Shown piece by piece: positions 39,856 to 42,879 of a stretch of DNA of 64,000 nucleotides. The stretch lies in the NCBI RefSeq assembly GCF_023973145.1, contig NZ_CP099546.1:1178001-1242000 (forward strand). The letters are read 5' to 3'. The position numbers were made by a program, and so were the translations under genes. This DNA is from Natronosalvus vescus (GTDB lineage Archaea > Halobacteriota > Halobacteria > Halobacteriales > Natrialbaceae). The notes under the pieces were generated by a model, which saw only the letters and a program-made list of their open reading frames with translations, was not told where the DNA came from and made no database searches. Position 1 is the stretch's first letter, and every line of letters starts with the position of its first letter.

Positions 39856-39906
39856 TCCGGTCGATACACCTATCACGCTCCCGTGTGTTGGCTGTCGACA
39901 AGAGTC

Positions 39907-40596
39907 ATGCCGTCACCGCAGGAGGTGCTCGATCGATGTGCCGACGGAACCCCATACGTGGCCCTGTCGACTGACTTCCTCGAGTTCGACAGACCAGCGG
40001 GTGACGACCCGCTGTTGCTGGTCGCCACGGCCGCAGCCGCGACGACGGGCCAGACGTACGCGACCGGCGTTCAACCGACCGTCGACCAGTTCGAGTCGAC
40101 GCTGATCGAATCCGGTCGAGTGACGACCCTCGACGACCTCGCGACGCTCGACCCCGCCGACGAGGACCTTCAAGAGGTCTTCGGGGCGAGCCGGAGTCGT
40201 ACTGCCCTGCTCCAGATCGCGTCCGTCATCGCTGACCGCCCGGAAGGAGACGAGTTCGAGGCGTTGTGTTCGTGGGCCGCCGAAGCCGACGTCTATCGGT
40301 ACGAGACGGATCCGATCGGCTCCATCTTGGGGGTCGGCCCCTCCTCGTTTCAGTACCTTCGACAGCTCGCCGGCATCGACACCGCGAAAGCCGACCCGGA
40401 TCTCGCGGTACTGCTCGATCGGGTCGAGTCGGATTCACAGACGGGGGTTATCGACACCGCCGAACCGCTACGATCCCTGGCGTCCTGTGAGTGGCTCTCG
40501 CTGACGACCGAGTATCGGATGATCGAGATTGACTGTCTCGCCTGGTGGCTCGAAGCAGACGAAGACGAACGCGTGGCCGTCACCGAACTCGGGTGA
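39907..40596 (+). CDS. Unrecognised haloarchaeal protein with HhH-GPD-like motif
   Basis: 229 residues, soluble, mostly helical. I recognise no family by name. Around residues 145-175 ILGVGPSSFQYLRQLAGIDTAKAD resembles the helix-hairpin-helix plus acidic residue of HhH-GPD DNA glycosylases (V-G-P-x-x-A-x-Y-L, then a D after the loop), but the catalytic Lys position is not evident. An N-terminal region (FDRPAGDDPLLLVATAAAATTGQ) has no match. It might be a degenerate glycosylase-fold protein. ATG 39907 was chosen by codon; GTG 39883 is the alternative. Confidence 0.6.
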   Translation: MPSPQEVLDRCADGTPYVALSTDFLEFDRPAGDDPLLLVATAAAATTGQTYATGVQPTVDQFESTLIESGRVTTLDDLATLDPADEDLQEVFGASRSRTALLQIASVIADRPEGDEFEALCSWAAEADVYRYETDPIGSILGVGPSSFQYLRQLAGIDTAKADPDLAVLLDRVESDSQTGVIDTAEPLRSLASCEWLSLTTEYRMIEIDCLAWWLEADEDERVAVTELG

Positions 40597-40646
40597 CTGG
40601 CCTGGTCGAGGGTTCTGAAACGGTTATACGCTGAGCAGGCGCAATA

Positions 40647-40666
40647 CCACGTCCTTCAGGGCGTGG
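40647..40666 (+). repeat. Left-end hairpin of the tnpB element
   Basis: Stem CCACG.CC / GG.CGTGG around a TTCA loop. It mirrors the right-end hairpin at 42065-42084, differing only in the inner bases. In the IS605 family such subterminal hairpins are bound by TnpA. Confidence 0.7.
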
Positions 40667-40782
40667 ATACGCGCCGTCGATTGATGGAACAATCCACTGC
40701 CTGTTGCATGGCTGGATATTCTATTCCGAATCGGTGCTATTATGTTTTCGACATTCATAACTGGTTATGAGGATAGAATCCG

Positions 40783-42042
40783 ATGCGAACCCACCGAACA
40801 TTCGAGGCGTCGATCACCAACCCACAGCAGGTGAGCGACGATCTCGATCAACTCGGACGGGCCGCGTCGAAACTCTGGAACGTCGGTCGCTACTACGCAC
40901 AAGAACAGTGGGACGAGACGGGCGAGATCCCCGATGACGGGGAACTCAAATCCGAACTCAAAGGCCACGAACGCTACACGGATCTTCATTCTCAATCCAG
41001 TCAGCGCGTTCTCGAACAACTCGCTGAAGCGTTCAACGGCTGGTTCAGAAAGCGTCGGAACGGCGATAGCCGTGCCCGACCGCCCGGCTACCGCAAGCGC
41101 GGTGGCTCCCACCCGCGTTCAACCGTGTCGTTCAAGGCGGCTGGCTTCAAGCATGATGCACAGTTCAACCGCGTTCGCCTCTCGAAAGGGCGCAACCTGA
41201 AAGAACACCGTTCGGACTTCGTGCTGTGTGAGTACGAGCTACGTCCCGACGTAGACCTCTCCGAGTGGGACATTCAACAGGTTCGGGCCGTCCGTAAGTA
41301 CGAAGAGTGGCGGCTTCACTTCGTCTGCCGAAAGTCGATTGATCCCGAACCACCGGGTGACGAGACTGCTGGAATTGACCTCGGCATCTCGAACATCGCC
41401 GCGCTTTCGTTCGGCGGTGAATCGATCCTCTTCCCCGGCAATGCGCTGAAAGCGGACGAATACTACTTCGGACGGAAGAAGGCAAAGTGTGACGATAGCC
41501 GATCCACCGAGCGGCTTCGGCTGGACCGGAAGCGCACGGAACGCCGAACCCACTTCTTGCATACCCTCTCGAAACACATCGTTTCGGAGTGTGTCGAGAA
41601 AGGCGTCGGAACCATCGTCATCGGGAACCTCGGTGGTATCCGCGACGACGAGAACGGCGAGTCTCGTAACTGGGGCAAGCACGGCAACCTCGAGCTTCAC
41701 GGCTGGGCGTTCGACCGCTTCACGTCGATGCTCGACTACAAAGCGGAAGCCAAAGGGATCGACGTGACGGTAGAATCTGAACGCGATACCTCGAAAACGT
41801 GTTCTGCCTGCGGAACCAGAGACGGCAACCAGCGGATCGAACGTGGGTTGTACGTCTGTGAAGAGTGCGATACGGTAGCGAACGCGGACGTGAACGGTGC
41901 GGAGAATATCCGACGAAAAGTAACTCCGAGTCCGTCACCGGATAGGAGTAACGGCTGGTTGGCACAGCCTGCAGTCCATCTGTTCGATCGTAGCGAGGGC
42001 AGTTTCGCCCCGCGAGAACAGGTCGTGGACTGCAAACCGTAA
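40783..42042 (+). CDS. tnpB: TnpB, RNA-guided RuvC-type nuclease family (IS1341 type)
   Basis: 419 residues. The OrfB N-terminal domain is followed by the RuvC fold: Asp199 in AGIDLGISN (RuvC-I), the zinc ribbon with Cys340, Cys343, Cys359 and Cys362, and Asp369 in ANADVNGAENI (RuvC-III). The RuvC-II position, usually Glu in VIEDL, reads VIGNLGG (Gly281-Asn282), so the third acidic residue is missing at its normal place. TnpB proteins cut DNA guided by a right-end RNA and support persistence of the element. Length is normal, with no frameshift. Whether it is active depends on a compensating acid. No tnpA is adjacent. Confidence 0.88.
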   Translation: MRTHRTFEASITNPQQVSDDLDQLGRAASKLWNVGRYYAQEQWDETGEIPDDGELKSELKGHERYTDLHSQSSQRVLEQLAEAFNGWFRKRRNGDSRARPPGYRKRGGSHPRSTVSFKAAGFKHDAQFNRVRLSKGRNLKEHRSDFVLCEYELRPDVDLSEWDIQQVRAVRKYEEWRLHFVCRKSIDPEPPGDETAGIDLGISNIAALSFGGESILFPGNALKADEYYFGRKKAKCDDSRSTERLRLDRKRTERRTHFLHTLSKHIVSECVEKGVGTIVIGNLGGIRDDENGESRNWGKHGNLELHGWAFDRFTSMLDYKAEAKGIDVTVESERDTSKTCSACGTRDGNQRIERGLYVCEECDTVANADVNGAENIRRKVTPSPSPDRSNGWLAQPAVHLFDRSEGSFAPREQVVDCKP

Positions 42043-42110
42043 TATCCCAACGGCGGTCGGGATTCCACGTCGTTTACGGCGTGGAGGATGTCAATCGTTG
42101 CCCGAACTGT
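42043..42110 (+). ncRNA. Probable right-end guide RNA (omega/re-RNA) of TnpB
   Basis: In IS605-family elements the TnpB guide RNA comes from the 3' end of tnpB and the right end, with the guide being the flanking DNA. Here the segment after the tnpB stop folds into the 42065-42084 hairpin. The guide would then start at about 42095 (ATCGTTGCCCGAACTG in the flanking lipoprotein gene). The RNA likely begins inside tnpB, so its 5' end is unknown. Placed by analogy only. Confidence 0.4.
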
Positions 42111-42837
42111 CTTCCCCATCGCTCGCCGTGTCCGACGCCCAGGCGAACTCGTGGGCGTCACCGTCGCCGTCGGTGATGGCGGCCGACCCCTGGCTCGGCG
42201 GCTCGCCGTCGTAGGTCACTCGCACGAGCAGCCCCAGGTCGACGAGCTGTTGGGTACACGCCTCGTCGTCGTCGCTGGTATCGACGGCGGCGGCCGAAAC
42301 CGATAATCCGTCCTCGTCGGTTGCCTCGAGCGAGCGCAACTGCAGCGCGTAACAGCCGTTCGTGCCCTGCGTCTCGAGGGCGAGCACGGTCTCAGCGTCG
42401 AAGTCGACATCGTCGAGGAGCGACTCGATGGCGTCCCGCTCTGTCTCCTGTCGATCCTCGAGGCCGAGATACGACTCGGCCTCGTCTCGGGTGCGGAATG
42501 TTTCGACGGCCGTCTCACCGCCGTCGGCCGTGTACTCGACCGCGTCGTAGTCGGCGACGGTGCCGCTTCCGCTTGGCTCGTCGCCAGACTCCTCGTCCTC
42601 GTCCTCGTCTTCGCTCTCCTCTGTGTCGTCCGTTCCGTCTGTGCCGTCGTTTTCACTACCCTCTTCAGTGTCGTCGGATCCGTTCTCGCCGTCGTTCGTA
42701 TCGTCGGTGTCGTCCGTCTCGTCGTCACCTGGATCACCTCCAGCGCCCGGATCGGACTGGTCGTCGAGACAGCCCGCGAGTGCGGCCGTGCCCGTGATTC
42801 CCGCGCCGATCAACAATCGCCGTCGAGTGAGCGTCAT
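42091..42837 (-). CDS. Acidic Tat lipoprotein, function unknown
   Basis: 248 residues from ATG 42837 (MTLTRRRLLIGAG). Signal with twin arginines and lipobox LAGC at about residue 23; then about 60 residues of Asp/Glu/Gly/Thr linker. The C-terminal domain (about 95-235) has two cysteines, in GTNGCYALQL and DDEACTQQL, that could form a disulfide outside the cell. The start is near-leaderless after a TATAAAT box. The TGA (42093-42091) lies at the very end of the IS1341-type element, so the present C terminus (SSGND) may have been set by the insertion. Confidence 0.75.
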   Translation of the reverse strand: MTLTRRRLLIGAGITGTAALAGCLDDQSDPGAGGDPGDDETDDTDDTNDGENGSDDTEEGSENDGTDGTDDTEESEDEDEDEESGDEPSGSGTVADYDAVEYTADGGETAVETFRTRDEAESYLGLEDRQETERDAIESLLDDVDFDAETVLALETQGTNGCYALQLRSLEATDEDGLSVSAAAVDTSDDDEACTQQLVDLGLLVRVTYDGEPPSQGSAAITDGDGDAHEFAWASDTASDGEDSSGND

Positions 42838-42860
42838 ATCTGCTGATTGTACGGCTGGGG

Positions 42861-42870
42861 ATGTATAAAT
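42861..42870 (-). promoter_or_regulatory. TATA box for the lipoprotein gene
   Basis: On the minus strand ATTTATACAT is centred about 28 bases before ATG 42837, the standard haloarchaeal distance for a leaderless or near-leaderless transcript. Confidence 0.6.
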
Positions 42871-42879
42871 CACGGAAGC

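What the first reader, a model, noticed from the sequence alone, without database searches (positions are those of the whole stretch)
41383..41895. TnpB without the usual RuvC-II glutamate
RuvC-I Asp199 and RuvC-III Asp369 are present, but the Glu of VIEDL is Gly281 in VIGNL. Known: relocated catalytic acids and inactive TnpB-like regulators both exist. So this protein is either an alternative-site nuclease or a dead RNA-guided DNA-binding protein.
Basis: partly seen in the sequence, partly recalled or inferred. Interest (0 to 1): 0.55.

Follow-up and report, generated by a model that had tools for sequence, protein, structure and literature searches.

The report
Ordinary TnpB with relocated catalytic glutamate
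A small RNA-guided DNA-cutting enzyme from a salt-loving archaeon looked as if it had lost one of its three metal-binding residues, but that residue sits at a second, already described position in the protein, so the enzyme is most likely an ordinary active nuclease of a mobile element.

Summary
The protein (window 40783-42042, +, 419 aa) is a TnpB with D199, D369 and Gly at 281, where most TnpBs have the RuvC-II Glu. But E333, in ERDTSKTC (Glu, six residues, first zinc-finger Cys), fits the 'alternative Glu' (Ealt) already described for Fanzors and some TnpBs (Yoon et al. 2023, PMC10711439). Of 125 aligned TnpBs, 84 have Gly281+Glu333, 40 have Glu281 and no Glu333, none has both, and one truncated row has Gly281 and a gap. 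The finder's own refuter is met in sequence; metal-site distances could not be measured. The element looks intact: left-end palindrome, end-to-end Rfam omega-RNA match (RF02656), TTAT left flank, TCAA right end. Four of six congener stretches fetched show the empty syntenic site. Codons 1-378 evolve at dN/dS about 0.1 against seven relatives, and dS drops where the gene overlaps the RNA. Best reading: an ordinary DPhiG/Ealt TnpB of an IS200/IS605-type element without its own TnpA, probably an active RNA-guided nuclease (cleavage not shown). A dead regulator is unlikely. Interest is low.

The parts
40628..42094 (+). IS200/IS605-type element carrying tnpB only (1467 bp)
   Evidence: Ends where 12 related copies stop resembling the window's flanks (one search printed the right end one base too far, corrected from the sequence); empty syntenic site in 4 of 6 congener stretches fetched
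40624..40627 (+). TTAT, left flank: presumed insertion target and TAM
   Evidence: TTAT in 12 of 13 rows (L035 and L036 have the same flanks, so not all are independent); target and TAM role inferred
40646..40666 (+). left-end palindrome ACCACGTCCTTCAGGGCGTGG
   Evidence: one match in the window, 0.01 expected; largely conserved among copies
40783..42042 (+). tnpB, 419 aa, RNA-guided endonuclease family
   Evidence: NF040570 E=3.4e-60, 204.4 bits against a cut-off of 100; PF01385 and PF07282 over cut-off
41377..41379 (+). D199 codon, RuvC-I (DLG, i.e. DPhiG motif)
   Evidence: strand 194-200 of the model
41623..41625 (+). G281 codon, place of the canonical RuvC-II Glu
41779..41781 (+). E333 codon, relocated catalytic Glu (Ealt), ExxxxxxC
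   Evidence: just after strand 327-332; catalytic role inferred
41800..41868 (+). zinc finger, C340, C343, C359, C362
   Evidence: C343, C359, C362 invariant in 80 rows; C340 at least 90%
41887..41889 (+). D369 codon, RuvC-III
   Evidence: helix 368-378 of the model
41918..42094 (+). omega-RNA scaffold (Rfam sot0042 hit 41918-42085; extension to the right end is inferred)
   Evidence: RF02656, model positions 1-174 of 174, 108 bits against a gathering score of 88; fold z -5.57; reduced dS in the overlap
42095..42114 (+). presumed guide: element's right flank (length of 20 assumed)
   Evidence: position after the conserved TCAA right end; TTAT plus the first 16 guide bases has no other match in the genome within 3 mismatches

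Best explanation
This is an ordinary TnpB whose RuvC site is D199-E333-D369. The second metal-binding acid has moved from the strand that now ends in G281 to the position just after strand 327-332, in front of the zinc finger (E333). Shown: the sequence, the conservation, the mutual exclusion of the two Glu positions, the omega-RNA match, the element ends and the empty sites. Inferred: that E333 binds metal; that TnpB binds the RNA that begins inside its own 3' end and runs over the right end, uses the flank beyond TCAA as guide, recognises TTAT as TAM, and cuts DNA that lacks the element (excised donor joint or empty allele), so that repair from an occupied copy keeps the element. The element has no TnpA of its own, so movement would need a TnpA in trans.
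For: E333 fits the published Ealt signature ExxxxxxC. 281=G in 81 of 81 close rows and 333=E in 79 of 79 with a residue. By tblastn over the fetched loci, 107 of 108 matching stretches with at least 50% identity that cover 333 have Glu there (some loci counted twice). Mutual exclusion in 125 rows: 84 G/E, 40 E/non-E, 0 both, 1 truncated. Both GAA (52) and GAG (27) encode residue 333, so it is kept despite silent change. In a 57-row tree the Ealt rows form one side of a branch, 96/85. The model (mean pLDDT 82.5) puts E333 directly after strand 327-332; [quoted passage not shown] PMC10711439 assigns Ealt to Fanzors, and in the Fanzor SpuFz1 E541, D383, N385 and D606 coordinate magnesium (PMC10432273, passage). 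dN/dS is 0.08-0.12 in codons 1-378 against 7 relatives.
Against: The close homologs are Ealt throughout, so conservation shows that E333 matters, not that the enzyme cuts double-stranded DNA. One partial relative, L088 (match to residues 327-419 only), has Gln at 333, and one relative, L080, has Asn at 199. No tnpA lies in the element. PMC12558985 (passages) says that H. [quoted passage not shown]
Confidence: 0.9

Rival explanations
1. A nuclease-dead TnpB used as an RNA-guided DNA-binding repressor (TldR-like).
For: Canonical Glu absent; no tnpA in the element.
Against: The three acids of the Ealt triad are present and conserved. TTAT plus the first 16 guide bases has no match elsewhere in the genome within 3 mismatches, only the element's own right flank; a shorter or looser target is not excluded. 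The locus is an insertion absent from four congeners, and related copies sit at unrelated flanks.
Confidence: 0.05
2. An alternative-site nuclease using a different acid near RuvC-II, such as position 282, D288 or E290.
For: Among the 80 close rows other than the query, position 290 is acidic in 76 and position 288 in 75.
Against: Position 282 is Asn in the window's own protein and Asn or Lys in 11 of 81 rows. Residues 287-306 are a stretch of pLDDT under 50 in the model. Only D125, D145, E333 and D369 are acidic in every close row with a residue there; D125 and D145 lie before the RuvC-I motif.
Confidence: 0.02
3. A decayed, inactive copy.
For: Several related copies in the 61 genomes searched are interrupted by stops or partial.
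Against: Open frame of full length, dN/dS about 0.1 in codons 1-378 (this averages over the time since the copies parted, so very recent decay would not show), end-to-end omega-RNA match, both ends present.
Confidence: 0.05

Closest known systems
DPhiG/Ealt TnpBs (Yoon et al. 2023, PMC10711439; section 23 and passages read)
   Same: DLG motif at RuvC-I, Glu six residues before the zinc-finger Cys, canonical Glu absent
   Different: No difference found; the word 'archaea' does not occur in that main text, so whether this haloarchaeal group was in their tree is not known to me
Fanzor and pro-Fanzor (DPG/Ealt)
   Same: Relocated Glu; mimivirus Fanzor2 9b0l aligns with Z 19.9, 353 residues, rmsd 4.9
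   Different: D199 is followed by Leu, not Pro; archaeal, with ends that look like IS200/IS605 and not IS607 (recalled)
ISDra2 TnpB (8exa; 8h1j)
   Same: Overall fold: 8exa Z 21.8 over 317 residues, rmsd 5.0; 8h1j Z 22.6 over 342, rmsd 5.3. D191 and D361 presumably correspond to D199 and D369 (inferred)
   Different: ISDra2 has the canonical Glu E278 (PMC10097598, passage)
Haloarchaeal IS200/IS605 elements with sotRNA (RF02656)
   Same: Same RNA family, overlapping the 3' end of tnpB
   Different: None seen

Membership tests
TnpB (NF040570) | Whole-protein match above NCBI's cut-off | tested here: met
   204.4 bits against a cut-off of 100
TnpB (NF040570) | Fold of TnpB/Cas12f with RuvC and zinc finger | tested here: met
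   7wju Z 26.7, 8h1j Z 22.6, 8iaz Z 22.5 (a second look at Foldseek's matches); PF07282 over cut-off
DPhiG/Ealt TnpB clade | D-hydrophobic-G at RuvC-I | tested here: met
   D199-L200-G201
DPhiG/Ealt TnpB clade | Glu six residues before the first CxxC, canonical Glu absent | tested here: met
   E333-RDTSKT-C340 and G281
DPhiG/Ealt TnpB clade | Separates from Ecan TnpBs in a tree | tested here: met
   57-row tree with the columns around 281 and 333 left out, 96/85; no published DPhiG/Ealt reference sequence was in the tree
DPhiG/Ealt TnpB clade | RNA-guided DNA cleavage | not testable with these tools
   needs a bench assay
Fanzor / pro-Fanzor | DPG at RuvC-I together with Ealt | tested here: not met
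   DLG in this protein; no DPG in the rows printed
TldR (nuclease-dead TnpB regulators) | RuvC acids lost | tested here: not met
   D199, E333 and D369 kept; the definition of TldR is recalled, that paper was not held
IS200/IS605 element | Subterminal palindrome, short T-rich sequence at the left flank, TCAA-like right end | tested here: met
   likeness to IS608 ends is recalled
IS200/IS605 element | Own Y1 transposase TnpA | tested here: not met
   Five Y1_Tnp matches in the genome, two with an internal stop, none in the window; tnpB-only (IS1341-type) elements are known (recalled)

The most novel reading that the evidence does not exclude
The moved Glu changes what the haloarchaeal enzymes do, for instance cutting or nicking the target with little or no collateral single-strand cleavage, so that this archaeal clade differs functionally from the Ecan TnpBs in the same cells. 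(PMC10711439 suggests reduced trans-cleavage for pro-Fanzors and Fanzors; passage.)
Probability: 0.15. Interest if true: 0.4.

Novelty: already known. Interest (0 to 1): 0.1.

Why it matters
It removes a false lead: a TnpB without the VIEDL glutamate should not be called dead unless the ExxxxxxC position is empty too. In 124 of the 125 proteins aligned here the two positions are exact alternatives, the last row being truncated, which gives a quick check for genome scans. The same genome holds both kinds, a natural pair for comparing the two active-site layouts.

Tried and rejected
Dead regulator: rejected on the intact D-E-D set, the lack of another genomic match to TAM plus guide, and the empty sites in congeners. 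Another acid near RuvC-II: rejected because position 282 varies to Asn and Lys. Pseudogene: rejected on dN/dS and the ends. Exact insertion point from the empty sites: the intergenic DNA is too divergent for base-level proof, so the ends come from the copies. Of six congener stretches, four (G002, G006, G007, G003) showed both flanks with the element missing; two (G004, G001) showed the left flank only and decide nothing. Overlay of active-site atoms: not possible, no coordinates in the box. A comparison of the downstream gene's C-terminus with congeners matched nothing. SpuFz1, the Fanzor whose Glu coordinates metal (PMC10432273), is not in the 50 rows shown; that list excludes nothing. Literature searches. 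Two papers that I asked for by DOI from memory (meant: the PNAS survey of TnpB and Cas12 diversity, and the TldR paper) were not held, so what I say of TldR is recalled.

Rows dropped before counts: one search kept ORFs of at least 330 aa, 106 of 156 hits, 100 distinct, giving 100 rows with the query; one search added 25 rows out of 27 hits from 30 further loci (ORFs of at least 300 aa, identical ones left out); the tree used 57 of 125 rows after thinning at 85% identity and dropping rows under 300 aa; the alignment for the model had 80 rows. works on stretches and counts loci fetched twice. One search used 7 relatives of equal length out of those fetched; the overlap with the RNA is only 41 codons, and dN/dS there is 0.13-0.47.

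Full report
What is there. The finding lies in a 419-codon gene, window 40783-42042 on the + strand. The protein is a TnpB: NF040570 'RNA-guided endonuclease TnpB family protein' at E=3.4e-60, PF01385 and PF07282 above their cut-offs.

The missing glutamate is not missing. Yoon et al. 2023 (PMC10711439; section 23 and passages read) describe two layouts of the RuvC triad in TnpB-family proteins: the canonical Glu about 50 residues before the zinc finger (Ecan), and an alternative Glu six residues before it (Ealt), which they search for with a pattern that contains ExxxxxxCxxC. They find Ealt in Fanzors and in TnpBs, in two clades, one with DPG and one with D-hydrophobic-G at RuvC-I. The window's protein reads E333-RDTSKT-C340 and D199-L-G, so it fits the second. 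Their sequences were not compared directly here.

Conservation. Of 81 full-length rows at 50% identity or more (query included), 281 is Gly in 81; 333 is Glu in 79 and gapped in two. A tblastn check over the fetched loci gave Glu at 333 in 107 of 108 matching stretches and Gly at 281 in 107 of 107; the one exception, L088, matches residues 327-419 only and has Gln. One relative, L080, has Asn at 199. With the rows under 50% identity, 125 in all, the two positions exclude each other: 84 rows G281/E333, 40 rows E281 with Pro, Ser, Ala, Gln or Arg at 333, one truncated row, none with both. The same genome holds both kinds, among them Ecan TnpBs such as L010, L014 and L020, and a second, distant Ealt protein, L013. 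In a tree of 57 rows built without the columns around the two positions, the Ealt rows form one side of a branch with support 96/85; two long branches (L177, L053) make deep placements unsure, and one origin is allowed, not proven.

Structure. The AlphaFold2 model (80 sequences, mean pLDDT 82.5, pTM 0.63) has D199 in strand 194-200, G281 in strand 275-282, E333 directly after strand 327-332 and D369 in helix 368-378. [quoted passage not shown] In a second look at Foldseek's matches the model aligns best with AsCas12f (7wju, Z 26.7, rmsd 4.4, 353 residues), then with TnpB 8h1j (Z 22.6, rmsd 5.3, 342), ISFba1 TnpB 8iaz (Z 22.5), ISDra2 TnpB 8exa (Z 21.8) and mimivirus Fanzor2 9b0l (Z 19.9, rmsd 4.9, 353).

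The element. An alignment with twelve other copies shows where likeness stops at the flanks: TTAT at 40624-40627 on the left (12 of 13 rows; L034 has lost its left end) and TCAA at 42091-42094 on the right (13 of 13); L035 and L036 share their flanks (one search printed the right end one base too far, corrected). The element is thus 40628-42094. A left palindrome lies at 40646-40666. Rfam sot0042 (RF02656), the haloarchaeal sense-overlapping RNA that PMC12558985 (passages) reads as omega-RNA, matches 41918-42085 over all 174 model positions at 108 bits against a gathering score of 88, and the strand folds better than 200 of 200 shuffles (z -5.57). The neighbouring genes lie next to each other without the element in four congeners, G002, G006, G007 and G003; stretches of two more, G004 and G001, are undecided. 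The next best full-length copy in the same genome is 64% identical. Five Y1 transposase matches are in the genome, two with an internal stop and none in the window, so any movement would need one in trans.

Is it maintained? Against seven relatives, codons 1-378 give dN 0.03-0.06, dS 0.36-0.53, ratio 0.08-0.12. In codons 379-419, which overlap the RNA, dS falls to 0.12-0.25 in the same comparisons, a drop of about two- to threefold, while dN stays alike (ratio 0.13-0.47); this rests on 41 codons. Both the protein and the RNA look constrained since these copies parted. Residue 333 is coded by GAA in 52 and GAG in 27 rows.

How it probably works. By analogy with ISDra2 TnpB (recalled): the RNA's guide is the DNA right of the element, the TAM is the TTAT left of it, and the target is the joint left after excision, or an empty allele. 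TTAT plus the first 16 guide bases has one match in the genome within three mismatches, the element's own right flank. That fits self-targeting for retention better than regulation of another gene, though shorter targets are not excluded. Cleavage itself is not shown.

Verdict. Interest 0.1.

Noticed in passing
L013 (own genome) and an ORF on the - strand of L046 (Halobellus rufus): A second, very distant Ealt TnpB lineage (about 23-26% identity to the query, SEAWTSQ before the zinc Cys) in haloarchaea; L177, from a genome related at phylum level only, is Ealt as well.
   Followed up: partly
G006:C1:585898-586424 and G002:C1:693159-693681: Matches to the left and the right end of this element lie about 0.5 kb apart on the same strand, with no match to tnpB between them in the listing: possibly mini-elements that use the same ends.
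   Followed up: no
window 42091-42873 (-): The stop codon of the downstream ORF (42091-42093 on the minus strand) lies inside the element's terminal TCAA, so the insertion may have supplied that stop (read; the comparison with congeners matched nothing).
   Followed up: partly
window 39883-40596 (+): 237-aa ORF just left of the element without a Pfam or NCBIfam match at E up to 1; DNA matches at this place in six congeners.
   Followed up: no
window 41918-42042: Synonymous divergence drops about two- to threefold where tnpB overlaps the omega-RNA (seven comparisons, 41 codons), a possible way to find the 5' end of omega-RNAs.
   Followed up: partly
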